In this document: piece by piece, positions 5,107 through 24,293 of the stretch | Layout of the letters: each line of letters starts with the position of its first letter | How positions within the stretch are numbered: position 1 is the stretch's first letter | IMG/VR virus record: IMGVR_UViG_3300031539_000278 | Coordinates: 1-25,836 of that record | Origin: a virus | Reading direction: 5' to 3' (one strand) | Length of the DNA stretch: 25,836 bases | Translations under genes and position numbers: made by a program | The notes under the pieces: generated by a model | The model's input: only the letters and a program-made list of their open reading frames with translations | What the model was told of the DNA's origin: nothing | Databases searched by the model: none

Positions 5107-6173
5107 TGGCACAGCGAGTGATCGACTCTTGTGATTTTTACGGTGATAGCGTGGGCATGAGGCAGGAGGGGTGGAGTATTTCCGTGGTAAAAGAGGCAGA
5201 TATTACAGCGGGGGCGGGGTATGGTAGGTTTCCCGGTCATGGAGGGATCGCCCTGGGCGACCTGTCCGATGGTGATTTATGGGCATCCCGTAATTTTCAG
5301 ACGTCCGGGTCTGTCGTTCATATATCGTATTCCGAGAAGATAGCTTCCTTTGGGGACACTACCCAGAACTTTTTTGAATTTTACAATAACAGTACAGACC
5401 TAGTTCTGCGGATCAAATGCGGAACGGACGGTGCCTTGTACGTATACAACAGTGCTGGGGCCTTAGTGCACACTACTTCCGCGGATGTCATAAAGATCGA
5501 ACAGTGGCAACATATAAAGCTGTCTGTACGGTCTCACGCGAGCGCAGGTACCGCCGACCTGATAATTGACAATGTGACAATTTTCAACCTAACGGGACTC
5601 GATACATCTGTTTCGTCGATAGATATTACCAAGTTTAGAATATATGGCTTTGAGGGGTACAGCGCATGCCAACTGGGGAATTGGTTTGACGATTTCCTTG
5701 TCTGTGATGACGCTGGGTCGGCTCCCTTCAACGCTCAACTGGCGACTGATTTTGTGATTGATACGCTACTTCCGACTTCAGACATAACCGAGGACTTTAC
5801 CTCGGTTGGAGCTACATCCGGGTACGAGTGTCTTGATGACCCGCTAACGGCAAACGATGATGCGAATACGACATACGTTCATAGCCAAACGCCTGCTGAC
5901 ATCAGTCTCCACGGGTTCGAGAATTTGACAGTAACCCCCGCCACTATCTATGGGGTGGCCATGGCGACTGTTTGGCAGTTGGTTGGGGCAGGGGCCAGGA
6001 CGGCAGCCCACATTTGGAAGCCAGCCGGTACTACCTACACAGACACGGCGGTGACGCCCCTGACGTCGTATTCTACTCAGTATGATCTGAGACCCTTGAA
6101 TCCCGAGGGCGGCGCCGCCTGGGAAAAAGCGGACGTAGACGCTCTAACCGCCGGCATTACCGTGGTGGCCTAG
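5103..6173 (+). CDS. Lectin-like (LamG / concanavalin-type jelly-roll) tail protein
   Basis: This is a 356-residue structural protein. Residues about 1-205 have the layout of a LamG/concanavalin-A-like jelly roll: an initial CDFYGDSVGM segment, VVHISYSEKIASFGD, FFEFYNNSTDLVLRIK, GALYVYNSAGALVHTTS, EQWQHIKLSVRSH, ADLIIDNVTIFNLTG and a closing NWFDDFLVCDDAG, the typical last strand. Residues about 206-356 form a second domain with VIDTLLPTSD, an NDDANTTYVHS segment and PLTSYSTQYDLRP, a combination seen in phage tail proteins that follow a jelly roll. The domain likely binds sugars or stabilises the fibre assembly, but no ligand is visible in the sequence. It overlaps both neighbours (ATGA before, 1 bp after), so it is translated with the fibre genes. 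Confidence 0.65.
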   Translation: MMAQRVIDSCDFYGDSVGMRQEGWSISVVKEADITAGAGYGRFPGHGGIALGDLSDGDLWASRNFQTSGSVVHISYSEKIASFGDTTQNFFEFYNNSTDLVLRIKCGTDGALYVYNSAGALVHTTSADVIKIEQWQHIKLSVRSHASAGTADLIIDNVTIFNLTGLDTSVSSIDITKFRIYGFEGYSACQLGNWFDDFLVCDDAGSAPFNAQLATDFVIDTLLPTSDITEDFTSVGATSGYECLDDPLTANDDANTTYVHSQTPADISLHGFENLTVTPATIYGVAMATVWQLVGAGARTAAHIWKPAGTTYTDTAVTPLTSYSTQYDLRPLNPEGGAAWEKADVDALTAGITVVA

Positions 6174-6583
6174 TGGCACTCCCGGATCTATATGCCACTC
6201 GTGAGGCGGTGGTTGTTGTCTCGGACGCTGACCCCGTGGTCCACGCCACCCGCGAGGCAGTGATCGTCGTCTCGGACGCTGACCCCGTGGTCCACGCCAC
6301 CCGCCAGGCCGTCCTGGTGATCCGGTCCCTAGCGCTTGACGATGCGGTACTTCACGCCACTCGCGAGGCGGTGATCGTCGTCTCGGACGCTGACCCCGTG
6401 GTCCACGCCACCCGCCAGGCCGTCCTGGTGATCCGGTCAATAGAGGTAAGGCTCAAAAAGGCCTACGCCAAGCGAAGTGGCCGTAACTGGTTCAAAAACA
6501 AACTCGCGGAAAATGTAATTGACGACAATACCCTAGATCTCGTGGTGGATGATCTCACGGGAGAATACGTCGTGGAGGGATAA
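6173..6583 (+). CDS. Small tandem-repeat tail protein
   Basis: This 136-residue protein starts at GTG 6173, sharing one base with the previous stop. Residues 1-90 are made of five near-copies of a 17-20 residue unit of the form x-ATR-E/Q-AV-x-V followed by SDADPVV or a variant. Three units carry SDADPVV and two carry LVIRS. The repeat is also conserved at the DNA level (see the separate repeat entry). The last 45 residues are different, charged and helical (KKAYAKRSGRNWFKNKL), ending DLTGEYVVEG. Similar 'xQAVVxVL' repeat proteins occur beside lectin-like tail proteins in other phages, so a structural connector is a reasonable inference, but no function is established. A GGAGG motif near its end serves the next gene. 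Confidence 0.6.
   Translation: MALPDLYATREAVVVVSDADPVVHATREAVIVVSDADPVVHATRQAVLVIRSLALDDAVLHATREAVIVVSDADPVVHATRQAVLVIRSIEVRLKKAYAKRSGRNWFKNKLAENVIDDNTLDLVVDDLTGEYVVEG
6242..6438 (+). repeat. 86-bp direct repeat, 111-bp period, inside the tandem-repeat gene
   Basis: Bases 6242-6327 and 6353-6438 are almost identical; only two differences were seen by eye (C/T at 6251/6362 and A/G at 6259/6370). The period of 111 bp is exactly 37 codons, so the duplication keeps the reading frame. A shorter partial copy (from about 6217, GTCTCGGACGCTGACCCCGT) precedes the first full unit. The near-identity points to a recent in-frame duplication. Confidence 0.9.
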
Positions 6584-6587
6584 AAAA

Positions 6588-9500
6588 ATGACGATACCGC
6601 ATTCACTCTTACAACACGGGGCTCGGCATGCCCCTTCTAATCTCTCGTACGCGGACGCGGCGAACCGGATAGCCGGAACAAACGAGTTGTCGTCTATTAC
6701 ACTGACCTCGGCCAATATAGGGCAGTACGCGGATCAGAGGGACGATGACAGCGTCTGGAAATTGACTGGAGTCGGACCCATTACTTGGCTGGCTGTCAGT
6801 GGTGGTGGTGGTGGTAGTGGAGACGTATCAAAGGTCGGGACTCCTGTCGATAACCAAGTCGGAGTCTGGACGGGAGACGGGACTATCGAGGGGACCACCG
6901 GGTTGACATATGACGGAACCAATCTCGGAATTACCGGAAATATCGTACTATCTGGCACAGTCGATGGGATTGACATCGCGACGGATGTTGCGGCCAACAC
7001 CTCCGCACGGCATGCCCGGTCTCACGCCATCACTTCTACATCAGATCATACTGCTGGGAATTGGAAAGTAATCCACACAAATGGATCTGGTCAGGTGATC
7101 GAACTACCGTTGGAGGCAGAGGGAAAAGTGCTGACCTGCCATGGTGTGGCAGCGGCACCTACTTTCGAAACCCCCGCTGTAGGAAAATCTGAGAGCACCT
7201 ATGACGAGACCCAAAGTGCTGGCATCATGGCTGGGGGCGCGGTCACTGACAATCTCGATGGCACGGTTGATATCGCGGTGCTGGATGTGATCCTCAAAAC
7301 TACAGCCTCACCCACCGGGGTCAATGCGATTTTCTCCGCAGAGAACGGTAACCAGATCGCAGCCGAAACAGGTTTGACGTTCACTGACGGGACGATAAAT
7401 TATATCCTGATAAACTACAACGCTGGTTCACCAACGGTTACCTCGTCGGTGACCGATACGTCCAACGGGTACAACATCATTAAACACTCCTGTGTATTCC
7501 GAGAGGGGACCACGCTGGACATTCTCCGCTGCGGACACCGAGTTGAGGATCTTGGGCACAGAGTAGATCTACACCACACATTAGAGTCACCATTACATTT
7601 TGTTTCTGGGGGTACGGTCACTGCGACTGGCACGCGAAATATTGCGATTAGCGCGGGTTTAATGTACTACGGGCTCAATGACCTCACGTCCGATGCGATT
7701 GACACGTCCGTAGCAGACACGTTCGAATACTACTATTACAACGGATCAGCTTGGGTAGAGTCAAGCCAGACCCAAATAGATAATTTACAGTACAACGACA
7801 CTTCATCAGGGCTGGCAACTCTATCTAATTCGCAATACGGGGTGCATTGGGTATACAAGGGTAGCAATGGTAGTACTTACGTGCTCTACGGGCAGGGTAG
7901 CTACACGCTATCGGAGGCTCAAACGTTATCGCCGCCTTCTACTTTGCCAGTTCACGTATTGAATTTTGGGTCTATCAGAGCGAAAATAATCATAGCGAAA
8001 AGTGCATCGGCTTTTACTGAGATCGACATGCTGAACGAACAGCAGTTTATCGGTTCCACCCCCGCAAACCACAACGATCTGGGAGGGATTCAGGGCGGCG
8101 CTGCCGCCAATTATTATCACGTTCTACAGGCAAATTTGACACCAGCAAATGCGGCACTGATTACGGGAGTGCAGGCGGCTGGCACGGGTTCGTCGGATGC
8201 GTTTGCACTGGCTGATCACATCCATCAAATACAGCACAGCATATCAGACAATGCTCTGGTTACTATGGACGAAACAGCTAATAACGGGGAGTATGCACAG
8301 TTCACGACGTCGGGCCTAAAGGGTCGGACCGTCGCTGAGTTGAGGTCTGATTTGAACCTGCCGACTGGCGCGAACAAACTGAATGCGACGGCGGCACCTA
8401 CGGCCAACGACGACTCAGCGGATACAAGCGGCAATGGGGTTTTCTCAGTAGGGTCGTTATGGATCGACGTAACAGGCGATGAGGCGTATCGATGTGTAGA
8501 TGCTACGCCAACGACGGCGGTTTGGGTAAAAACCACGCTTGACACAGGGGAGTTAGCGACAATCGCGGTCACGGGTGCAACGGGAGATTTGATCGGAACC
8601 ATCACTGGGAGCCAAATATCCTCTAATACTGTCGCCTATGCAAATATACAACAAGTAAGTGCAACGGATCGGCTGCTTGGAAGAGATTCTGCTGGTGCGG
8701 GAAATATCGAGGAAATCACCCCCACCGCGCTTCGGACAATGATTGGTGTGGCGGATGGGGCGGACGTGACTGGTAGCAACGCCCCGCAGGCGCACAAGGA
8801 CAGTCACGATCCAGAAGACGGGTCGGATGCCGTGGATACCGCAGCGGCGGCAGAAATCGCCGGGGTTCAGGCGGCGGCGGTGGGAACGTCTCACTCACTA
8901 GCCCGTGCGGACCACGCACACCAAATCCAGCACGGAATCACGGACAACCATCTTGTCACGGTGGACGGGTCGATTGTCTCCGGCGATTTCGCCAAATTTA
9001 CTGCCGATGGCCTCGAAGGCCGAAGCGTTGCTGAGATGCAGTCGGACCTTGGGATTGGTGGGGGAGCGGTTGATTCGGTCTTTTCCCGAACTGGCGCTGT
9101 GGTTGCGACAGCGTCCGACTATGACATTACTCAAATTGATTTTTCAGCCACAGCAAGGATTGCTGGCCGTGTAACGGCTGGAGCTGGACTCGCCGAGGAA
9201 CTGACCAAGGCGCAGGTATTGTCGTTTCTTAACGTCGAAGACGGTGCGGACGTAACGGATTCTAGCAACGTTGCTACGGCAGGTGCGATAATGAAGTCCC
9301 TGGTCACGACCAAGGGGGACATAATCGCTGCCACGGATAGTGCCACTCCAGCACGTCTGGGCGTTGGCACGAACGACTACGTTCTCACTGCGGACTCGGC
9401 CCAGGCTACGGGGATGAAGTGGGCGGCGGCGGAAGGTGGCGGGTCCTTGGAAGACGCCTACGATGCGGAGCCAGGGGTACAGAGAGTGGTCACCGTAGAT

Positions 9501-10838
9501 GACGAGGACTTCTCTTTGATCCTGGACCCAGCAACGGGGGAAATACGGGCCTTTAAAGTTTCCGCACCCGTCGAGGCGTATTCTGGGGTATGGACAGCCA
9601 GGGCCGCGTCGGAAGCGAATGGTTGGCAAGCTGTAACGTATGGGAACGGACTGTTTGTTGCGGTGTCATCCGATGGCACGAACCGGGTGATGACTTCGCC
9701 GGACGGAATAACCTGGACAGCCAGGGCCGCGTCGGAAGCGAATGCTTGGCGCTCGGTAACGTACGGGAACGGACTGTTTGTTGCAGTTGCATCCTCTGGC
9801 ACAAATAGGGTGATGACTTCGCCGGACGGAATAACCTGGACAGCCAGGGCCGCGTCGGAAGCGAATGGTTGGTACGAGGTAACATATGGGAACGGACTGT
9901 TTGTTGCGGTGTCATACGATGGCACGAACCGGGTGATGACTTCGCCGGACGGAATAACCTGGACAGCCAGGGCCGCGTCGGAAGCGAATACCTGGCGCGC
10001 GGTAACGTACGGGAACGGACTGTTTGTTGCGGTGTCATACGATGGCACGAACCGGGTGATGACTTCGCCGGACGGAATAACCTGGACAGCCAGGGCCGCG
10101 TCGGAAGCGAATACCTGGCGCGCGGTAACGTACGGGAACGGACTGTTTGTTGCGGTGTCATCCGATGGCACGAGCCGGGTGATGACTTCGCCCTACGTCG
10201 GGCCCAGCTACTGTATGTTCTCCAACGATAACGGGGCGGGGGTGGCACTGTCAGCTTCCCTGGTATCTGCGCAGATCGGCACCACTGAAGGTTTCGGGAT
10301 CGCGGGCACTCTGGCTGTAGATTCCAACGCGGCCAACACGGTTTCTATTTTGGAACTTGAGAACACGGCTGGCTCTATTAACGTCTTCCGAACGGACGAG
10401 ACCCCAGAATCTTCGGTCACGGCGGGGATCGCGTCGCTGGCGCTGGACGGCACGGGCGGCGTTGGATACATCAAAAAGACGGGCACAGGAAATACTGGGT
10501 GGTTGCCATTAACAACAGGGACTAGAAATATAAAGAACATCACAGTCGTCTCCACCTCGACGGCCAATGTCGCGGCAACGGATGAAATCATCCACGTCAC
10601 CAGAACGACGGCGGGCGTATGCACTCTCACTGTCCCCAGCGCACTTCTTGCCGCTTCGGCCAACGAGGGGATGGTTTTCACGGTGAAGGACGCGGGCTTT
10701 AACGCTTCCACATACACAATCACGATAGCAACCCAGGGGACGGAGACAATCGACGGGTCGACGAGCGACTACACAATCGAAACGGACGGGGCGGCGGTAA
10801 GATTTCAGATTTCCAGTGGCAACTTGGTAACGATATAG
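6588..10838 (+). CDS. Large tail fibre / receptor-binding protein with beta-propeller repeats
   Basis: This gene encodes 1416 residues. I chose ATG 6588 over an upstream in-frame ATG at 6549 because GGAGGGA lies just before it and because the N-terminus then aligns with the protein at 4375. Domains in order: shared attachment module (about residues 1-66), a GGGGGS-type linker near 75, a long beta-rich shaft, two copies of a module with the D-H-x-H-Q-I-Q-H motif (His 544/546 and 776/778), a fibre-type VFSRTGAVVATASDYD segment near 830, five 41-residue repeats (1002-1206) with Asp-box motifs (S-P-D-G-I-T-W), and a 210-residue C-terminal beta domain. It should project from the baseplate and bind the host surface. 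No intramolecular chaperone motif was recognised. Size and repeats make misassembly across the repeats possible. Confidence 0.8.
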   Translation: MTIPHSLLQHGARHAPSNLSYADAANRIAGTNELSSITLTSANIGQYADQRDDDSVWKLTGVGPITWLAVSGGGGGSGDVSKVGTPVDNQVGVWTGDGTIEGTTGLTYDGTNLGITGNIVLSGTVDGIDIATDVAANTSARHARSHAITSTSDHTAGNWKVIHTNGSGQVIELPLEAEGKVLTCHGVAAAPTFETPAVGKSESTYDETQSAGIMAGGAVTDNLDGTVDIAVLDVILKTTASPTGVNAIFSAENGNQIAAETGLTFTDGTINYILINYNAGSPTVTSSVTDTSNGYNIIKHSCVFREGTTLDILRCGHRVEDLGHRVDLHHTLESPLHFVSGGTVTATGTRNIAISAGLMYYGLNDLTSDAIDTSVADTFEYYYYNGSAWVESSQTQIDNLQYNDTSSGLATLSNSQYGVHWVYKGSNGSTYVLYGQGSYTLSEAQTLSPPSTLPVHVLNFGSIRAKIIIAKSASAFTEIDMLNEQQFIGSTPANHNDLGGIQGGAAANYYHVLQANLTPANAALITGVQAAGTGSSDAFALADHIHQIQHSISDNALVTMDETANNGEYAQFTTSGLKGRTVAELRSDLNLPTGANKLNATAAPTANDDSADTSGNGVFSVGSLWIDVTGDEAYRCVDATPTTAVWVKTTLDTGELATIAVTGATGDLIGTITGSQISSNTVAYANIQQVSATDRLLGRDSAGAGNIEEITPTALRTMIGVADGADVTGSNAPQAHKDSHDPEDGSDAVDTAAAAEIAGVQAAAVGTSHSLARADHAHQIQHGITDNHLVTVDGSIVSGDFAKFTADGLEGRSVAEMQSDLGIGGGAVDSVFSRTGAVVATASDYDITQIDFSATARIAGRVTAGAGLAEELTKAQVLSFLNVEDGADVTDSSNVATAGAIMKSLVTTKGDIIAATDSATPARLGVGTNDYVLTADSAQATGMKWAAAEGGGSLEDAYDAEPGVQRVVTVDDEDFSLILDPATGEIRAFKVSAPVEAYSGVWTARAASEANGWQAVTYGNGLFVAVSSDGTNRVMTSPDGITWTARAASEANAWRSVTYGNGLFVAVASSGTNRVMTSPDGITWTARAASEANGWYEVTYGNGLFVAVSYDGTNRVMTSPDGITWTARAASEANTWRAVTYGNGLFVAVSYDGTNRVMTSPDGITWTARAASEANTWRAVTYGNGLFVAVSSDGTSRVMTSPYVGPSYCMFSNDNGAGVALSASLVSAQIGTTEGFGIAGTLAVDSNAANTVSILELENTAGSINVFRTDETPESSVTAGIASLALDGTGGVGYIKKTGTGNTGWLPLTTGTRNIKNITVVSTSTANVAATDEIIHVTRTTAGVCTLTVPSALLAASANEGMVFTVKDAGFNASTYTITIATQGTETIDGSTSDYTIETDGAAVRFQISSGNLVTI
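9591..10205 (+). repeat. Five 123-bp tandem repeats coding beta-propeller blades
   Basis: Units begin at 9591, 9714, 9837, 9960 and 10083, each 123 bp (41 codons), and most bases are identical. The protein unit starts W-T-A-R-A-A-S-E-A-N, carries TYGNGLFVAV and ends MTSPDGIT, so the junction makes an Asp-box (S-P-D-G-I-T-W), the signature of BNR/sialidase-type propeller blades. The last unit loses the DGIT end. Differences cluster in two spots: the codons around W (GWQA, AWRS, GWYE, TWRA, TWRA) and the loop before DGTN (SS, AS, SY, SY, SS). Confidence 0.95.
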
Positions 10839-15914: not shown

Positions 15915-17912
15915 TTACTTCCCATAATACTTGGATTCCCATCCCTCCGCGACCAACGGCATCCCCAGCGCCCAGGGGGGCAGGGTGGCCAAGGCCCCCT
16001 CGAATTCTTGGACACTGCCGAACCCTAGCGGGACGTGGGCGAGGGCCTCGTCGTGTACCGTCAAAATGCACTGGTAACCCTCCCGCTCGGCCGCGACCAT
16101 GCCGGAATACATGAGATCGGCGGATAGTCCTTGAATCAAATTCTCCATCCACTTCCCTCCATATCCCGAATCTTGAATCCACTTTTTCGAGACGGGGTGG
16201 ACCGTCCAAAAGCCCACGGCCTCCCGTTCAAAGCGGTTCAGTATGATCTTCGGATCGCAATAGCGCAGGTCTCTACCCGACGGAAGACGCATGCAGAGCC
16301 AGCGGCCCTCGACGCGGAAGGAAACGCCCTTGTACTTCGTCTTGACTTCCCGGCCCGTCTTCACCGCTTTGATTGCGGCGTCGTTCAAGGCGTACCAGGC
16401 TTTCGGAATCTTGGTGTAGGTATCGCGGTACGTGTTTTTGACCATCTCAGAGAATTCTTTCGATACCTCAATCCCATAGGCGAGACAACGGGTCCGGAAC
16501 GTCACCGCACCCATTTGATACCCGAGGGCGAGGATCGCTTGTTTCCCGAGATTTCTTTGAAACTTTGTTACCTCTGAATAGGGGGCCTTGAAGATCTGCG
16601 CGGCCATTACTTTGTAGAGGTCAAGCCCCTGTCTATAGGATTCGAGGACGCCCTCTTCCCCAACCAACCAGAACGTCCCTCGGGCTTCGATCGCCGAGTA
16701 ATCCGCGCAATAGATCAAATGCCCGGGCTCGGCCTCTATCAAAGACCGCATCGAGGAGACCATCGCGTTGGTAGGTGTGCCATACATAAGGCGCAGAAAC
16801 TCAACATCTCCCTCGTCTATCGCGGGCAGGACATCGCGTTCAATGTCCACGCGCTCGAATAGGGGACGCACTACGTTGTGCAACTGGACGCCTCGGCACG
16901 TCCAACGACCCGTGTGGGCGCCGTGGTCTATGTGCTCGTCGTGTAGACGCCCGTCCCCTGTTGCCTTGGCGACGATCCCCTTGGCCTTGGTAACGCTGGC
17001 CTTGCCGTGCTCTAAGCGAATGCAGATTAACTCTGCGGCCCGTGGGTGTATTAAGGACAGGTCCAGTTTTTCGAGTATTTCTTTCCCCATCGATGGGAGG
17101 TTTAAGCCGAGTCGTGCAAGTTCTTTTTGTATCCGCGCGGATTGGGAGGGGCGGGCAACGCGGCCATCCGTCAACTCAATCAACCGCGCGGTAGCAGGTT
17201 CTTTCTCGGCATCTATCAACTCGATTATTTTTGCCGCTCGCTCAGAATTTACGGGCACCCCCCTTTGGTTGAGTGTGGCGGTATAGACCCAGTGTTTACG
17301 ACCGCTCGGAGTCAACTTGGGCATCGCGTGGTAAAGGTCCCTCATGGCCACCACGTCCACCTCGCAGTACTCGGTCAGGCGCTTTATTTTAGAGGCGTCG
17401 AAATCCCATTTTTTCCCCTTTCCCTTCGTCAGCCATTCGGTGCGGGGTTTGCACATGGACCGCATGAGTGCGCCGCCGTCAACGTCCTTTGGGACTGGTA
17501 GCCCCAGGGCTTCTACGGCCCACCCAAGACCCATGGGGAGACCTGCGGCACTGGCAGCGGCCTGGGTATCGTACCAGGCGGTGAGGGGTAGCTCGGGCCA
17601 CCCGAAACGGGGTGTCATGATGTTTTTCCAGATCGCTATCTCAAACGAGGCGTTGTGAGCTACATATTCGCGGGCAACCGGGGGCGGTTTGCGCAGGGCT
17701 TCGAAATCTAGATCCTCGTCGTACTCCCCTGGGTGCTTCAAGTTGAACTTGGGGACTACTAACCGCGCGTGCCTAGAAGCCATGCGGGTCTCATCGCCGT
17801 AGGCAACGCACAGAACGTGTGTGCTCGGGTGCTTTGAGTACACGGTCTGACCAACCACTTTTAGGTCGGCCTCAGACCGCGTCTCGAAATCTATGTATAT
17901 TCTTTCTAGCAT
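15915..17912 (-). CDS. polA-like: Family A DNA polymerase with 3'-5' exonuclease
   Basis: This protein has 665 residues from ATG 17912, with GGGAGGT eight bases upstream. The exonuclease domain is intact: IDFETRS (Asp8/Glu10), AHNASFE (87-91) and EYCEVDVVAMRDLY (Asp186/Asp192). Then come TGRWTCRGVQLHN, motif A YCADYSAIEARG (Asp404), motif B RNLGKQAILALGYQMG (Arg453, Lys457, Tyr465) and motif C LTVHDEALAHV (His620, Asp621, Glu622). It is a replicative phage polymerase of the type found with DUF2800 and DUF2815 genes, as here. No 5' nuclease domain is present. The start codon and ribosome site lie in one arm of a perfect inverted repeat (see the regulatory entry), unlike the other genes in this operon. 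Confidence 0.97.
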   Translation of the reverse strand: MLERIYIDFETRSEADLKVVGQTVYSKHPSTHVLCVAYGDETRMASRHARLVVPKFNLKHPGEYDEDLDFEALRKPPPVAREYVAHNASFEIAIWKNIMTPRFGWPELPLTAWYDTQAAASAAGLPMGLGWAVEALGLPVPKDVDGGALMRSMCKPRTEWLTKGKGKKWDFDASKIKRLTEYCEVDVVAMRDLYHAMPKLTPSGRKHWVYTATLNQRGVPVNSERAAKIIELIDAEKEPATARLIELTDGRVARPSQSARIQKELARLGLNLPSMGKEILEKLDLSLIHPRAAELICIRLEHGKASVTKAKGIVAKATGDGRLHDEHIDHGAHTGRWTCRGVQLHNVVRPLFERVDIERDVLPAIDEGDVEFLRLMYGTPTNAMVSSMRSLIEAEPGHLIYCADYSAIEARGTFWLVGEEGVLESYRQGLDLYKVMAAQIFKAPYSEVTKFQRNLGKQAILALGYQMGAVTFRTRCLAYGIEVSKEFSEMVKNTYRDTYTKIPKAWYALNDAAIKAVKTGREVKTKYKGVSFRVEGRWLCMRLPSGRDLRYCDPKIILNRFEREAVGFWTVHPVSKKWIQDSGYGGKWMENLIQGLSADLMYSGMVAAEREGYQCILTVHDEALAHVPLGFGSVQEFEGALATLPPWALGMPLVAEGWESKYYGK

Positions 17913-17989
17913 GGCTTTTACCTCCCGCCGACTTCGCCTAACCGGGGAGAGGGTCCAAGTTGGCAGCGGTCGGCGGGAGGTAAAAGCCA
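17912..17989 (-). promoter_or_regulatory. Perfect 21-bp inverted repeat sequestering the polymerase ribosome binding site
   Basis: Bases 17912-17932 and 17969-17989 are exact reverse complements, with a 36-base loop between. In the leftward RNA, the 3' arm contains the GGGAGG ribosome site (rc of 17921-17926) and ends at the A of the polymerase ATG; the 5' arm contains ACCUCCC, like the ribosomal anti-SD. The structure should hide the ribosome site. T4 DNA polymerase, known to repress its own translation by binding a hairpin around its ribosome site, is a functional analogue (established knowledge). Autoregulation here is inference. A role as a DNA palindrome in replication is also possible. 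Confidence 0.85.
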
Positions 17990-18007
17990 GGGACCCCGCG
18001 GGGTCCC
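17990..18007 (-). terminator. GC-rich palindrome, attenuator/terminator-like
   Basis: GGGACCCCGCGGGGTCCC is a perfect 18-base palindrome just before the polymerase hairpin. In the leftward RNA it would fold into a 7-8 bp GC stem followed by UGGCUUUUACC. The U run is short and interrupted, so strong intrinsic termination is doubtful. It lies 13 bases beyond the stop of the 65-residue protein. It may be an attenuator or a transcription pause ahead of the polymerase switch. Confidence 0.5.
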
Positions 18008-18020
18008 GAGCTACAAACTT

Positions 18021-18218
18021 TTAATCGAGTCCCTTCTCCCGGGCAATGCTTGCCGAGATTATTAGGTCGCCCGTGGTCCCCTTCTTGTACACTTCCGAAT
18101 CCTCGGATACATGAGACAGCGGGATCCAGATCTCTTCTTCGAGTATATCCGCTGTCACCAGGATAGACTTACTCGTGGATGCGATGCACTCGGCGTCCGA
18201 TATTGTTACCCACTCCAC
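18021..18218 (-). CDS. 65-residue small protein before the polymerase gene
   Basis: This is a small acidic protein read from GTG 18218, two bases after the stop of the DUF2815 gene (TAG 18221-18223). It starts MEWVTISDAECIASTSKSIL, has a beta-rich middle (ILEEEIWIPLSHVSEDSEV) and ends GDLIISASIAREKGLD. Small proteins at this position, ending 'I/V-x-A/E-EKGL', are found in other phages with the DUF2815-polA module and have no clear function; I base that on pattern resemblance only. The weak ribosome site suggests coupling to the upstream gene. It is the last gene before the palindrome and hairpin region. Function unknown. Confidence 0.7.
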   Translation of the reverse strand: MEWVTISDAECIASTSKSILVTADILEEEIWIPLSHVSEDSEVYKKGTTGDLIISASIAREKGLD

Positions 18219-18220
18219 GA

Positions 18221-18823
18221 CTAAAATCCGAGGTCGTCGGCGTCCGAACCGAAATCATCGGCTACGCTCGTCGAGTCGTCGAAATCATCGGCGGCGTCGG
18301 ACTTGGAGGCGCCCCCAAAAGGCTCATCGTCTCGCAATTTCTGGACGTTTTGGAGGAGGAAGGTTACCCCTTTGGCCCTTGTCCCGTCATACGCAAAGGG
18401 GATCACCGAAGCGCGGCACCAGCACCCGGCGTAGATGTCCCCGCTCTCCTCAGTAATTGGACGTCGAGACAGGTCCACGACTTGAGGGGGCGGGTCGATT
18501 TTCGACTTCGCCTTCACGACCCAGTATCCGCGCGCACGGTTTGGAACTATTTTTCCATCGATCTCTTTGTCCTCAAAATCTTCTTCATCGTCCCCATCGC
18601 GGAAAGGGCTGCGAAATTTCTTCGGCGTCCCATCCGGGAATTTTTCTTTCGTCACACGGGAAGCGCCCGCTTTCATCGCTTTTAGGTCTGATCCCTCTTT
18701 GGGTAAGAGCATTGTGAGCTCATACGCGCCTTCCCCCTCCTCCCCGACGAATTTCTTCCGCTCGTACAGCGAGGGGAAACTGAGTCGAAAGGCTGGGGTT
18801 ATCACTAAATTAGGGTTACTCAT
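18221..18823 (-). CDS. DUF2815 family ssDNA-binding-type protein
   Basis: This gene encodes 200 residues with a strong AGGAGGA site seven bases before ATG 18823 and an 8-bp overlap with the nuclease gene. The start (LVITPAFRLSFPSLYERKKF) and the central GYWVVKAKSKIDPPPQVVD and GDIYAGCWCRASVIPFAYD segments are the family pattern of DUF2815, phage proteins of the OB-fold ssDNA-binding type. The last 35 residues are highly acidic (DDFDDSTSVADDFGSDADDL) and end in Gly-Phe, like the acidic C-terminal tips of bacterial SSB and T7 gp2.5 that recruit partner enzymes. It should coat single-stranded DNA for the polymerase, primase-helicase and nuclease encoded around it. Confidence 0.88.
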   Translation of the reverse strand: MSNPNLVITPAFRLSFPSLYERKKFVGEEGEGAYELTMLLPKEGSDLKAMKAGASRVTKEKFPDGTPKKFRSPFRDGDDEEDFEDKEIDGKIVPNRARGYWVVKAKSKIDPPPQVVDLSRRPITEESGDIYAGCWCRASVIPFAYDGTRAKGVTFLLQNVQKLRDDEPFGGASKSDAADDFDDSTSVADDFGSDADDLGF

Positions 18824-20063
18824 GGAAATCCTCCTGCGCGGTCGATTTCTTCGCCGCGTCTCGTTTGTCTGATTCGGGGACTAGGGCCAGACCTTTGTAG
18901 GGCCTGTGGGTTCGTTTATCTACCATTTGGGGGTTATGCCCTGCGGATTTCATCGCTGTTTTAAGGCGTCCAGGGGGGAGTAACAAGGATTCGAAAGCGA
19001 TCTTTTTCATACCGCCCCGGGCGAAGTACCTCTCGGCGGCTCCCTTGTCCTCCCAAGTCGCGTTTCCGTACGATTCCACGAGCTTCCAGCCGTCGACATC
19101 CTGCCCGTTTTCTAGGGCACTTCGAACGGTGGCAGCACAGGCCTTGAAATACTCTTCGACCCCCCATTTGCAACGCAGCATGTCGGCCGCTTTGTCAGTC
19201 GTGGTGTCCAGGGGGTCCGCCTCGGCTGCGAATTCGATGGCGTACTCGATCGCAGGGCATACGTCGGGGCGGGCGCCGGGGCACCAGTGGCAGTGCTCAC
19301 CCGGTACGTGCTGTGCTTCCCCCTCCTCGATTGCTTTGTGCGCTTTCATGACGCCACCCCTGGCATACGTCAGGTCAACGATAGACGGTTCCCAGACCTT
19401 CGGGCACTCGCCACGTCCACGGGGCTGGAAAATATGGATCGTCCGGCTCTCGGGCTGAACCGGGGGGCCCAGGGTGTCGAGAGCACCCATCAGGTAGATC
19501 ATGGCCTGGGTGTTCTCCACCGCTTTGACCTCGATCCCTTGACCATACTTTAAGTCGATGACGTGGATCACGTTGGGCCCGAAGACGATCGCGTCCGCCG
19601 TGCCCTCCACGGGCAGCCCGTGCATCGCAACTTTTGTCTCGACGTAGAGACTTTGGGGGCACTCCCCCAACGGGTCCGCCTCGTCAACGAGGGCCATCAC
19701 ATAATCGACGTACGCCGACACGTGTCCGACCATTTCCTCGGTTATCTGGATGTCCCCTATCCGCTCGGACTCCTCGGGGTCCTCTTCATCATACCAATAT
19801 TCACGGGGGACCGCTTGACTGATAAGGAGACCCCCAGATTCCGCCAGGGGCACTAAAAACCCGGCTGGCACGGTTACGAGAATTCCCGCAGCCACCTCTA
19901 GGCTCACTGCGGCCAAAGCGTGAGCGGCGGATCCTTCAATCGCGGGTTCTCCTGCGGGTTCCTCGGGCAGTGTAGCGGCGAATACGGCGGACCCCGGGCA
20001 GTTCATCCACCGGCTAGAGGCGCTTGGGCGCAAGAGAAATTCTACGTTTTTAGGCAAAAGCAT
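18816..20063 (-). CDS. DUF2800 RecB-like nuclease with Fe-S type cysteines
   Basis: ATG 20063 (AGAGG upstream) gives 415 residues; a TTG at 20084 is less likely. The PD-(D/E)xK nuclease motifs are visible: H48 in EGSAAHALA, D157 in EGTADAIVF, D170-x-K172 in VIDLKYG and Q186/Y190 in QAMIYL. Four cysteines are placed as in Fe-S nucleases of the Cas4/AddB type: C22 near the N-terminus (MNCPGS) and C258, C261, C269 in HCHWCPGARPDVCPA. That spacing suggests a 4Fe-4S cluster. DUF2800 proteins are common phage replication-recombination genes beside DUF2815, as here. Likely role: processing DNA ends for recombination-dependent replication. It overlaps both neighbours, so it is part of the same transcript. 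Confidence 0.9.
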   Translation of the reverse strand: MLLPKNVEFLLRPSASSRWMNCPGSAVFAATLPEEPAGEPAIEGSAAHALAAVSLEVAAGILVTVPAGFLVPLAESGGLLISQAVPREYWYDEEDPEESERIGDIQITEEMVGHVSAYVDYVMALVDEADPLGECPQSLYVETKVAMHGLPVEGTADAIVFGPNVIHVIDLKYGQGIEVKAVENTQAMIYLMGALDTLGPPVQPESRTIHIFQPRGRGECPKVWEPSIVDLTYARGGVMKAHKAIEEGEAQHVPGEHCHWCPGARPDVCPAIEYAIEFAAEADPLDTTTDKAADMLRCKWGVEEYFKACAATVRSALENGQDVDGWKLVESYGNATWEDKGAAERYFARGGMKKIAFESLLLPPGRLKTAMKSAGHNPQMVDKRTHRPYKGLALVPESDKRDAAKKSTAQEDFHE

Positions 20064-20598
20064 TTTCGGCCTCTGCGAACTCAAGCAGTTTTTCGAGGAA
20101 ACCGGCGTTTAGGCTCTCGTTGAGCTCCGTGGCGGTCTTCACCCCAACGCCCTTCAGCGCCTGGGCTATCACGCCCGCCGTCCCGTTGCGGTCAAGGGTT
20201 GAGTGCTTCTTAAGGACGGCGGCAGCCTCCCTAACCTCGGCGTATGTCGCTGGTTCTGTCTTTGCCAAAACGCCCCTTACAAACTCAGAGAGGGGATTTT
20301 CGGTGTCGGCGTCGGTATCGGGTTTTGCTTCGGCCTTGGTCTCCGGGTCAGCTTTTGGCTCCGGTTTCGGGTCAGCTTTTGGCTCCGGTTTCGGGTCAGC
20401 TTTTGGCTCCGGTTTCGGGTCAGCTTTTGGCTCCGGTTTGGGTTCGGCCTTCGGGCGGCGTCCGGGCTCGGGGCCAACTCCCGTAATGGGCTTCCGGCTG
20501 TCGTCGTACAGCATTTCAACGACGGCGGCGACGGCATGTAGGGCGGGGGCGTCCAAAGCCCCTAGGCACCCGGTGTCAAGTTCCAGTTTGATTATCAT
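20050..20598 (-). CDS. Two-domain protein joined by a Lys-Pro-Glu repeat linker
   Basis: This protein has 182 residues and starts at ATG 20598 with GAGGG six bases upstream. The N-terminal part (about residues 1-35) has MIIKLELDTGCLGALDAP and a helix to VVEMLYDD. Residues about 47-98 are a repetitive Pro/Lys/Glu/Asp-rich stretch, KADPKPEP in four copies, which should be an extended linker. The C-terminal part (about 100-182) is helical, with ATYAEVREAAAVLKKHSTL, VIAQALKGVGVKTATEL and GFLEKLLEFAEAENAFA. That end resembles helical domains found at the end of phage recombination-module proteins, but I do not assign it. It is the first gene after the internal promoter and overlaps the nuclease gene by 14 bp. 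A scaffold for replication proteins is possible, unproven. Confidence 0.65.
   Translation of the reverse strand: MIIKLELDTGCLGALDAPALHAVAAVVEMLYDDSRKPITGVGPEPGRRPKAEPKPEPKADPKPEPKADPKPEPKADPKPEPKADPETKAEAKPDTDADTENPLSEFVRGVLAKTEPATYAEVREAAAVLKKHSTLDRNGTAGVIAQALKGVGVKTATELNESLNAGFLEKLLEFAEAENAFA
20345..20440 (-). repeat. Four 24-bp tandem repeats coding the KPEP linker
   Basis: Four consecutive 24-bp units (GGGTCAGCTTTTGGCTCCGG plus TTTC on the + strand) start at 20345, 20369, 20393 and 20417; the last differs at its final base. They code eight-residue units of K-A-D-P-K-P-E-P type. Slippage could change the copy number in steps of eight residues without a frameshift. Confidence 0.95.
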
Positions 20599-20650
20599 GT
20601 TTTTCCCTCTTCTGTGTTGCCGGGGTTTCCAGCGGTTTTTTGTCCTGAGT

Positions 20651-20679
20651 TAAATACAACGCTTATTCGAGGTTGTCAA
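20651..20679 (-). promoter_or_regulatory. Internal sigma70-like promoter for the replication genes
   Basis: On the - strand a perfect -35 box TTGACA (rc of 20674-20679) is followed after 17 bases by TATTTA (rc of 20651-20656), with A-rich sequence upstream. The -10 match is moderate. It lies 52 bases before the ATG of the linker protein and would give the nuclease, DUF2815, polymerase and lysis genes their own transcript start. The -35 overlaps the stop codon of the 29-residue ORF. Confidence 0.5.
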
Positions 20680-20765
20680 GCTTCTTTTGGTTCTTTTGTC
20701 TCTTTGCTGTTTAATACCTCGTTTCGCATTATCGCCGCGCCGTGGTCCTTTATTAAGTTTTTCAT
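20676..20765 (-). CDS. 29-residue small ORF
   Basis: A small ORF starts at ATG 20765 with GGAGAGG seven bases before it and an ATGA overlap with the stop of the previous gene. It reads MKNLIKDHGAAIMRNEVLNS and ends with a charged segment (KETKEPKEA). The ribosome site and overlap support translation. It lies just before the internal promoter. Function unknown; it could also be a leader peptide or a relic. Confidence 0.45.
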   Translation of the reverse strand: MKNLIKDHGAAIMRNEVLNSKETKEPKEA

Positions 20766-20971
20766 TGCCACCTCTCCAATTTTGTTAACAGCGGGCACTT
20801 GTACCCCGTTTCAATCGGCATCTTCCCAAACGCACGATACCCCCTCAAAACGTCGGCTTTGGTGCGGGCGCTGTACTCAACCCAATACCGAGTTTGGCCG
20901 GGCAACCGCGGGGTCGTCACGTCCGACGGGGGCAGCTTTAACCAGCGACCGTCTAAGATGGCGTTAATCAC
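20762..20971 (-). CDS. 69-residue hypothetical protein
   Basis: This small basic protein is read from GTG 20971, 8 bp inside the preceding gene. It starts INAILDGRWLKLPPSDV, contains a short beta-type segment, GQTRYWVEYSARTKADVL, and ends GYKCPLLTKLERWQ with a single Cys. It is rich in aromatic and basic residues. I do not recognise its family. A weak ribosome site before GTG suggests coupling to the zinc-binding gene ahead of it. The stop overlaps the ATG of the 29-residue ORF. Confidence 0.6.
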   Translation of the reverse strand: MINAILDGRWLKLPPSDVTTPRLPGQTRYWVEYSARTKADVLRGYRAFGKMPIETGYKCPLLTKLERWQ

Positions 20972-21797: not shown

Positions 21798-24293
21798 TTA
21801 GTATTCAACGGCTGATTCTTTCAACCGGATACCCTTTAGTACACTGACCCCGTTTGCGACCTTGTGGGCGCGGTAGCCCATCTGCATCAAAGCGACCTCA
21901 AAACGTCCCAAGCTCAACGAGTACTTGACCCCGCCGAAATCCTTGCACCACAAGCGGTAGTCCTCAAACACTTCGGAAGTCCGAGTCACGAATTCCTCCC
22001 CGCTGTCCGTGCGGGCGTGGACGTAATCAACCGTCGGGTTGGCCAGTCGCAACCAGTCCCTCTTGGCTTCCTCACACTCCTGGGGTACGTCAAACCGACC
22101 GCGAACCCTCAACCGCGCATATCCCTCAAGAGCCCGGTTCAAGACGCCGGGCAGCTCGTTTTCCAATATCTGATATTTCAGATTCAGATCTGACTCGTCC
22201 TCCTTGAATTTACGACGGAACGGGATAATGAAGGTCTTCCGAAGCATACCCCAACTCAGATCCCGGACCTTGGGCCACCCGTTGATACAAATTACCGGGG
22301 TGGCGCAGGACGTAAAATTGTAAGCGTTTTTTATCTTCGGGTTGGCTTCCATCAGCTTGGCTTCAGACAGTTTCTTCAAAGCGGACTCGGGCAGCAACGT
22401 GGTGGTCTCGGAGTCGTCATCGAGCACGAGGAGTTTACCCACCAACGAGGCCACCGCGTGGTTATTGCGCCCCGTGTCCGCGAAGTCCGCAACGGCCCTG
22501 GGCAAGACGGCATTGCCAAGCAGGGCGCCAAGGACCGCAGTCACCAACGACTTCCCGTTTGACCCGTCCCCATAGAACATCCACCACGCCGGGATATTTT
22601 TGCGCGGTTGGATAGTGTACCCGGCAAACTCCCACCAATGGCGGACCACGGCTGCGGGGTCTGCGTTGTCCCGAAAAATGTTCGTTAAAGTCTGGTCCAT
22701 TATTGGACACGTGGCCGCCGCGTCGTATTCAGTGTCCAAAACAGACATCAGGTACGATTTGGGGTTGTGTTTCTTCACCGCGGGCGGCCCGCCGTTGGCC
22801 CCAATCCAGACCTCCGCACTGCGGGTGTTGACGACGGCCGGCGGCGTCGGATTGGCCAGCCCCAGGACGTCCGTTAACTGAGTACAACGGGCGCTTAGGA
22901 CCCGACCAGCGGTAGACAGGGCGCTGCTGGGTCGAAATTCTAGGCCCTCGGCCTTCAAGACCTCCCCGGCCTCCAGTAAACGGCGGTCAATCACGTTCGG
23001 CGGGACCTCCGCCCAATGGGTGCCACAGAACCCATAGAAAATCTGGTTCTGGGCGTGCAATAAATAAGCCCCCTTCTCCCAGAACATTTCAAGGGCTTTT
23101 TCCGCAACCTCGATTCCATAATCCGTCAACTCATCGTCGCCACTTTTGTCACGTTTGGCGCGGGCCTTCGCCAGCTGCTCAATGCGAGCATAGATTTTGT
23201 CAAGCCCTTTGAGAGACACGCCGATTGACCTCTTTATCGCCACGCGGATCCGCTCCCAATCGCCGAGGGAGAAACGGCGATGAGCCTCACCCACCAGGGC
23301 GTCCAGGTCTACAGTGGGGGGCGCGGGGTCTACCCTTTCGTGTATCCAATCCGTCACCAGGTCCGTTCGGGGCTTGACCGTTGGCGCGTCGGGTATCGTG
23401 GGAATCGGTACCCCGTCGAAATCCTCGGCCGCGCTTGTCCGGACCGCTGCAGTTCCCCCCGCGCCTTTCGCCGCTTGGGCCAGCGATGCCACCGTGATCC
23501 CGCCCGCGGTCGCCTCGAAGCTGTCCCATTTCTGGGCGCACACGTCCCCCGCGTCCGAGTAGGCAGGATCCGAGGTGGACCAGGCGGACCACAGCGCCAG
23601 ACCCTCTCCACTTCCCCCGGTCCCCGCGTGCACCGCCATCCCGATTTCCAGCCATTCGCTGTAGTCGCTCTTTGTCGTCGGGTCGACCTGGGATAGTAGG
23701 CCCTCGACCTCCGAAAATGGGCGGACCCCCGACCCTCCCCTCGACCCTTGGGTCGTTGGGGCGGGGTGAGGGCTCGCCTTGATCATTGAGCACAACCAGG
23801 GGGGCATCTCCATCCCGGGGGCGCTGGGGTCCGTCAGTAGGTCCCAAGCGTACTCCCGCCCCGTGTCGGGATGCACGGACCCCGCAATCACGACGTATTG
23901 CCCGTGGTGCCGGAAATCGAGGGGGGCGTATTCGAGAGGGTTGTGTACGGATTGGCCCTCGGGTAGCTGCAAATAAAAATGGAGACCTCGGTCTTCCCCG
24001 CCGGTCAACACGAGGGGGGCTTCATCGATGCCGGGCCAGTCTTTTCTCAGTTTTTCCAGGGCGTCAAGGGCCCATACCCCCGCCGCTGAACACTTGCGGG
24101 GGTCGACGTCGAGTACCACGTCGCAAGGGCCCATCGTCCACCCGAGGTTACATCCACTTTTGACAGCGTGTCTTACGTTCTCAGTGAGGTATTCCCGGGT
24201 TCTCCAGTTGGTGGAGTCTCGGGGCACTTTTCCCCGCAACGGTATCAACCGCCGGGCCCTCTCTAGGTAGGGCTGGTAGTCTGGGCCACCCAT
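21798..24293 (-). CDS. Bifunctional prim-pol / SF3 (D5-type) primase-helicase
   Basis: This is an 831-residue fusion. Residues about 10-165 are an archaeo-eukaryotic prim-pol domain: V-L-D-V-D-P with catalytic D62/D64, GLHFYLQL with H105, and GQYVVIAGSVHPDTG. Residues about 195-275 are a primase C-terminal helical domain (YSEWLEIGMAVHAGTG ... CAQKWDSF). The middle carries the D5-type N-terminal region. The SF3 helicase has Walker A GDGSNGKS (575-582), Walker B LLVLDDDSE (621-629), the CATPVICINGWPKVRD motif (663-678) and an Arg-rich RKTFIIPFRRKF. It makes primers and unwinds the fork for the polymerase. Its ATG follows the preceding stop directly (TAA ATG) without a clear ribosome site, so coupling is likely. 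Length matches phage/plasmid prim-pol helicases. Confidence 0.95.
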   Translation of the reverse strand: MGGPDYQPYLERARRLIPLRGKVPRDSTNWRTREYLTENVRHAVKSGCNLGWTMGPCDVVLDVDPRKCSAAGVWALDALEKLRKDWPGIDEAPLVLTGGEDRGLHFYLQLPEGQSVHNPLEYAPLDFRHHGQYVVIAGSVHPDTGREYAWDLLTDPSAPGMEMPPWLCSMIKASPHPAPTTQGSRGGSGVRPFSEVEGLLSQVDPTTKSDYSEWLEIGMAVHAGTGGSGEGLALWSAWSTSDPAYSDAGDVCAQKWDSFEATAGGITVASLAQAAKGAGGTAAVRTSAAEDFDGVPIPTIPDAPTVKPRTDLVTDWIHERVDPAPPTVDLDALVGEAHRRFSLGDWERIRVAIKRSIGVSLKGLDKIYARIEQLAKARAKRDKSGDDELTDYGIEVAEKALEMFWEKGAYLLHAQNQIFYGFCGTHWAEVPPNVIDRRLLEAGEVLKAEGLEFRPSSALSTAGRVLSARCTQLTDVLGLANPTPPAVVNTRSAEVWIGANGGPPAVKKHNPKSYLMSVLDTEYDAAATCPIMDQTLTNIFRDNADPAAVVRHWWEFAGYTIQPRKNIPAWWMFYGDGSNGKSLVTAVLGALLGNAVLPRAVADFADTGRNNHAVASLVGKLLVLDDDSETTTLLPESALKKLSEAKLMEANPKIKNAYNFTSCATPVICINGWPKVRDLSWGMLRKTFIIPFRRKFKEDESDLNLKYQILENELPGVLNRALEGYARLRVRGRFDVPQECEEAKRDWLRLANPTVDYVHARTDSGEEFVTRTSEVFEDYRLWCKDFGGVKYSLSLGRFEVALMQMGYRAHKVANGVSVLKGIRLKESAVEY

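What the first reader, a model, noticed from the sequence alone, without database searches (positions are those of the whole stretch)
17912..17989. Polymerase gene appears to be controlled by a perfect 21-bp RNA hairpin that hides its ribosome site
The two arms (17912-17932 and 17969-17989) are exact reverse complements. In the transcript of the polymerase gene the inner arm holds the GGGAGG site and the first base of ATG, and the outer arm holds ACCUCCC, an internal anti-SD. A stem this long and perfect would nearly block initiation unless opened by a protein, helicase action, co-transcriptional timing or RNA cleavage. The T4 polymerase autoregulatory hairpin is a known functional parallel, but this stem is much longer. 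No other gene in the operon has such a structure.
Basis: partly seen in the sequence, partly recalled or inferred. Interest (0 to 1): 0.78.

Follow-up and report, generated by a model that had tools for sequence, protein, structure and literature searches.

The report
Hairpin hiding a phage polymerase's ribosome site
Just before its DNA polymerase gene, an uncultured phage carries an unusually long, perfect RNA hairpin that should block ribosomes from starting the polymerase unless something opens or cuts it; similar but weaker switches are known in other phages, and no close relative was found to test this one.

Summary
Arms 17912-17932 and 17969-17989 pair 21/21 with a 36-nt loop; about 8e-7 such repeats are expected in the window. 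On the minus-strand transcript the inner arm holds GGGAGG and the A of the family-A polymerase ATG. A perfect 18-nt palindrome (17990-18007), the only one above 14 nt in the window, abuts the hairpin with no spacer. A 7/8 closing helix may bury the first codons. The polymerase frame is open back to the TAA of the preceding 65-aa ORF. The start is the least accessible of 872 phage starts scored (opening cost 33.5 kcal/mol; typical 8).

Sequestration of the ribosome site is well supported as a structure. Its function is inferred. The best reading is a cis-acting off-switch on full-length operon RNA, relieved when the outer arm is removed, most plausibly by RNase III-type cleavage. A T4 gene 43-type operator is a poor parallel; T4 e/soc/49/I-TevI and adhE/lambda cIII are closer. 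The nearest polymerase found is only 41% identical and no relative scored has a comparable hairpin, so covariation is untestable. Perfect arms also fit a recent inverted duplication. This is a new, extreme variant of a known kind.

The parts
17912..17932 (-). Inner (3') arm GTCGGCGGGAGGTAAAAGCCA: contains the SD GGGAGG and the A of the polymerase ATG
17969..17989 (-). Outer (5') arm TGGCTTTTACCTCCCGCCGAC, contains anti-SD ACCUCCC
17933..17968 (-). 36-nt loop with predicted small internal helices; no sigma70-type promoter found in it
17990..18007 (-). Perfect 18-nt palindrome GGGACCCCGCGGGGTCCC (7-bp hairpin, weak T tail TGGCTTTTAC), directly abutting the 21-bp hairpin; could be a weak terminator or attenuator
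18010..18017 (-). 5' strand of the possible closing helix (UUUgUAGC), 7/8 complementary to 17903-17910
   Evidence: 2.5% chance between random 16-mers
17903..17910 (-). 3' strand of the possible closing helix (GCUAgAAA), codons 1-4 of the polymerase
15915..17912 (-). DNA polymerase family A with 3'-5' exonuclease motif, 665 aa
   Evidence: start supported by M1 and the DFETRS position conserved in relatives
18021..18218 (-). 65-aa ORF upstream (PHROG 8389, weak, E 2e-5), in the same frame as the polymerase; its TAA is 36 sense codons before the ATG
18221..18823 (-). ssDNA-binding protein (Enc34/gp2.5-like) upstream in the operon
18816..20063 (-). PD-(D/E)XK / DUF2800 exonuclease upstream in the operon

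Best explanation
The 21-bp hairpin is a cis-acting off-switch for polymerase translation on the polycistronic replication mRNA (exonuclease - SSB - 65-aa ORF - polymerase). Shown: both arms lie in the leader of the polymerase on the same strand, the SD and the first base of AUG lie inside a perfect stem, and opening the start region costs about 33 kcal/mol by calculation. Inferred: RNA transcribed through the operon yields almost no polymerase until the outer arm is removed from the duplex. The most likely way is cleavage of the long dsRNA stem by a host RNase III-type enzyme, as in adhE and lambda cIII. This would let abundant SSB and scarce polymerase be made from one transcript. The adjoining 18-nt palindrome may add partial attenuation.
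For: Exact 21/21 arms, about 8e-7 expected. RNA fold z -7.3. Opening energy 33.5 kcal/mol, the largest of 872 predicted starts in this operon and in related phage loci, where the median is about 8. The SD is captured as soon as it is transcribed. The only palindrome of 16 nt or more in the window abuts the hairpin with no spacer, which suggests a built element. No sequence within 1.5 kb upstream or 1 kb downstream could compete for either arm with 8 nt or more. Hairpins of 10 bp or more are commoner in gaps before polymerase than before other genes in related phages: 6 of 32 clusters against 8 of 182 gaps, p 0.009, not significant after matching gap length. RNase III is known to free occluded RBSs (PMC5371410).
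Against: There is no expression or cleavage data, and the host is unknown. No homologous hairpin was found, so there is no covariation; the 41% relative lacks it. Perfect arms with no G-U pair or mismatch suit a recent inverted duplication as well as RNA-level selection. Position is weak evidence: in a 108-nt gap, about 10 of the 32 possible placements of a 78-nt repeat would put the SD inside an arm. RNase III could cut within GGGAGG and destroy the SD instead of freeing it.
Confidence: 0.5

Rival explanations
1. Promoter gating, as in T4 e/soc/I-TevI. Read-through RNA carries both arms and is silent; a transcript starting inside the loop or outer arm lacks the outer arm and is translated.
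For: Geometry like T4 e and I-TevI, where both arms form only on upstream-initiated RNA (PMC3014915, PMC2988022).
Against: No sigma70-like promoter in the G+C-rich loop or outer arm. No motif of the region recurs convincingly in other intergenic gaps of the phage. The known cases are mostly late genes. An unknown sigma or phage promoter is not excluded.
Confidence: 0.15
2. A recent inverted duplication (template switch) with no evolved function, which merely lowers polymerase expression or is passing through the population.
For: Arms perfect over 21 bp with no wobble or mismatch. Absent from all relatives compared. About 10 of 32 placements within the gap would hit the SD by chance (arithmetic from the coordinates).
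Against: The hairpin abuts the only other exceptional palindrome of the window with no spacer. Blocking an essential replication gene should be selected against.
Confidence: 0.2
3. Intergenic terminator, attenuator or mRNA-end protector between SSB and polymerase that happens to overlap the RBS; it acts by lowering downstream RNA, not translation.
For: Other phages of the group have 10-15 bp hairpins in the gap before polymerase, usually after SSB. The 18-nt palindrome plus TGGCTTTTAC is among the most G+C-rich stems in the terminator-like scan.
Against: The 21-bp stem has no T tract after it. The palindrome's T tract is weak, and the number of such sites equals chance (20 found, 18 expected). 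Most of the hairpins of relatives near the start end before the SD.
Confidence: 0.1
4. Translational operator opened or held by a phage protein, e.g. polymerase or SSB autoregulation.
For: Polymerase and SSB of T4 autoregulate translation (PMC3014915).
Against: The T4 gene 43 operator is a short hairpin about 40 nt upstream. A stem this stable is already closed without protein, so a repressor is not needed. No homologous element in relatives.
Confidence: 0.05

Closest known systems
T4 e, soc, 49 and I-TevI translation-initiation hairpins (PMC3014915, PMC2988022)
   Same: SD and/or AUG sequestered by an upstream strand present only on long polycistronic RNA
   Different: Here the stem is a perfect 21 bp, the gene is a replicative polymerase, and no promoter was found between the arms
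RNase III-activated occluded RBSs: E. coli adhE, lambda cIII (PMC5371410)
   Same: RBS hidden in a dsRNA stem of a size suited to RNase III
   Different: Cleavage not shown here; the SD is in the middle of the stem, so a cut might destroy it
T4/RB69 gene 43 translational operator (PMC3014915)
   Same: RNA hairpin in the leader of a phage DNA polymerase gene
   Different: T4: 18-base hairpin about 40 nt upstream, protein-bound, SD outside the hairpin, alpha-like polymerase. Here: family A polymerase and the SD inside the stem
Insertion-sequence fold-back inhibition (IS10/IS50, own knowledge)
   Same: Read-through RNA folds and hides the SD
   Different: No transposase and no other copy of the repeat here

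Membership tests
SD-sequestering hairpin (T4 e/soc/49/I-TevI kind) | SD and/or AUG in a stable stem with an upstream strand | tested here: met
SD-sequestering hairpin (T4 e/soc/49/I-TevI kind) | Promoter located so that its transcript lacks the upstream strand | tested here: inconclusive
   No sigma70-like site, no recurring motif; other promoter types not covered
SD-sequestering hairpin (T4 e/soc/49/I-TevI kind) | Measured repression of translation by the stem | not testable with these tools
   Needs reporter fusions
RNase III-activated RBS (adhE, lambda cIII) | Double-stranded RNA of sufficient length (paper used a minimum target size of 22 nt) | tested here: inconclusive
   21 bp perfect, extended by loop helices and a neighbouring hairpin in the prediction; threshold from PMC5371410
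RNase III-activated RBS (adhE, lambda cIII) | Cleavage increases translation | not testable with these tools
   Needs rnc+ / rnc- comparison
T4 gene 43 operator | Short hairpin about 40 nt upstream, SD outside it, conserved loop, bound by polymerase | tested here: not met
   Geometry differs: stem spans -77..0 and includes the SD; binding not tested
Intrinsic terminator | G+C stem followed at once by a T tract | tested here: not met
   21-bp stem is followed by TGCTAG; the abutting palindrome has only TGGCTTTTAC
Any Rfam family | Gathering-score match | tested here: not met
   0 matches in the window

The most novel reading that the evidence does not exclude
A composite RNA switch (closing helix, 18-nt palindrome hairpin and 21-bp SD-hiding hairpin in a three-way junction) that keeps a replicative DNA polymerase fully off on the operon RNA until a specific nuclease, helicase or leaky read-through of the in-frame TAA opens it, coupling replication onset to a host or phage activity.
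Probability: 0.15. Interest if true: 0.7.

Novelty: new variant of a known kind. Interest (0 to 1): 0.4.

Why it matters
If functional, it would be an extreme case of RNA-structure control on an essential replication gene. The known phage cases cited guard mainly late or homing-endonuclease genes. It gives a clean test of how a cell opens a computed 33 kcal/mol barrier at a start site, and how a phage sets SSB and polymerase levels from one operon.

Tried and rejected
Covariation: no close relative in phages, plasmids or IMG/VR, nor by polymerase in genome contigs; relatives cannot be drawn for a virus record. Rfam: none. Recoding of the upstream TAA: rejected, TAA ends 9 of 12 genes checked. 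Alternative polymerase start: no ATG/GTG/TTG in the open upstream frame, and M1 and DFETRS align with relatives. Replication origin: no GC-skew turn at 17.9 kb; skew follows the gene-orientation switch near 12.4 kb, and the site is G+C-rich. Mobile repeat: no other copy. Competing pairing elsewhere in the mRNA: none of 8 nt or more. N-runs in L120 gave false long repeats and were ignored. The hairpin enrichment before polymerase weakens when gap length is matched and is only suggestive. Polymerase starts of relatives are on average only about 1.1 kcal/mol harder to open than other starts at equal G+C (p 0.012, relatedness not corrected), so no strong general trend.

Full report
Observation. 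The two arms 17912-17932 and 17969-17989 are exact reverse complements (21/21) separated by 36 nt. By base composition about 8e-7 such repeats are expected in the window. In 1.17 Mb of related phage and prophage loci I found only two genuine perfect repeats of 16 bp or more with a loop of 80 or less (L036, 25 bp inside a CDS; L099, 23 bp intergenic); hits made of N runs in L120 are artefacts. Neither was flagged as overlapping a start.

Setting. The window is a 25.8-kb virus record from IMG/VR. The minus strand carries a replication cluster: primase (21798-24293), exonuclease (18816-20063), Enc34-like ssDNA-binding protein (18221-18823), a 65-aa ORF (18021-18218) and a family-A DNA polymerase (15915-17912). 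The polymerase start at 17912 is well supported: M1 and the DFETRS exonuclease motif align with relatives, and no other common start codon exists in the open frame upstream.

Additional anatomy. An 18-nt perfect palindrome, GGGACCCCGCGGGGTCCC (17990-18007), abuts the outer arm without a spacer. It is the only palindrome of 16 nt or more in the window; 0.17 of 18 nt or more are expected. The fold also closes a short helix between 18010-18017 and 17903-17910 (7 of 8 pairs; about 2.5% by chance for random 16-mers), giving a predicted three-way junction that buries the start. The polymerase frame is open through the hairpin to the TAA of the 65-aa ORF. Read-through is conceivable but unsupported.

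Accessibility. Freeing -18..+6 of the polymerase start costs 33.5 kcal/mol, the highest of 872 predicted starts in this operon and related loci (median about 8); other scored starts on this strand cost 2-15. As a minus-strand transcript grows, the stem closes on the SD as soon as it is made, so racing ribosomes gain little. No part of the neighbouring mRNA can compete for either arm with 8 nt or more.

Relatives. The best polymerase match is 41% identical (L009). Among the 85 homologs compared, perfect repeats near the start reach at most 12 bp and none covers the SD like this. Several relatives have 10-15 bp hairpins in the gap before polymerase, usually after SSB; those near the start mostly end before the SD. 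The enrichment is p 0.009 for stems of 10 bp or more after clustering, but not significant with gap length matched. The window may thus be an extreme form of a looser theme, or an independent event.

Mechanism. Sequestration is well supported as a structure; regulation is inferred. Because the stem is closed on its own, a repressor is unnecessary and an opener is needed. I favour processing of the long duplex by an RNase III-type enzyme: RBSs occluded until RNase III cuts are documented for adhE and lambda cIII (PMC5371410). The T4 e/soc/49/I-TevI arrangement uses an internal promoter instead (PMC3014915, PMC2988022). I found none here, but only sigma70-like sites could be scanned.

Caution. 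Perfect arms without wobble pairs are also what a recent template-switch duplication gives. In a 108-nt gap, about 10 of 32 placements of a 78-nt repeat would cover the SD. Function therefore needs experiment.

Verdict. A real and exceptional structure, of a known functional kind, unproven, in a phage without close relatives in the collections searched.

Noticed in passing
window 18021-18023: The polymerase frame is open for 36 codons upstream of its ATG to the TAA of the 65-aa ORF, so the two ORFs are in one frame separated by a single stop.
   Followed up: partly
window 9591-10205: About five 123-nt tandem repeats (88-93% alike) inside the 1429-aa ORF 6549-10838.
   Followed up: no
window 20303-20454: 24-nt repeats in ORF 20050-20598.
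   Followed up: no
window 6191-6443: Repeats of 51 and 111 nt spacing inside ORF 6173-6583.
   Followed up: no
window 20599-20963 (minus strand): Promoter-like TTGACA-17-TATTTA upstream of ORF 20050-20598; possible promoter of the replication operon. Seen by eye, not by the scan.
   Followed up: no
L111 3994: Polymerase SD of a prophage-like locus in Arenibaculum predicted paired with its own early codons (9 bp; opening cost 22 kcal/mol): a possible independent case of polymerase SD sequestration.
   Followed up: partly
L099 960-1080; L036 991-1050; L127 3500-3610: Other long inverted repeats in related loci: 23 bp intergenic, 25 bp inside a CDS, and a set of GTCAAAATAA repeats.
   Followed up: no
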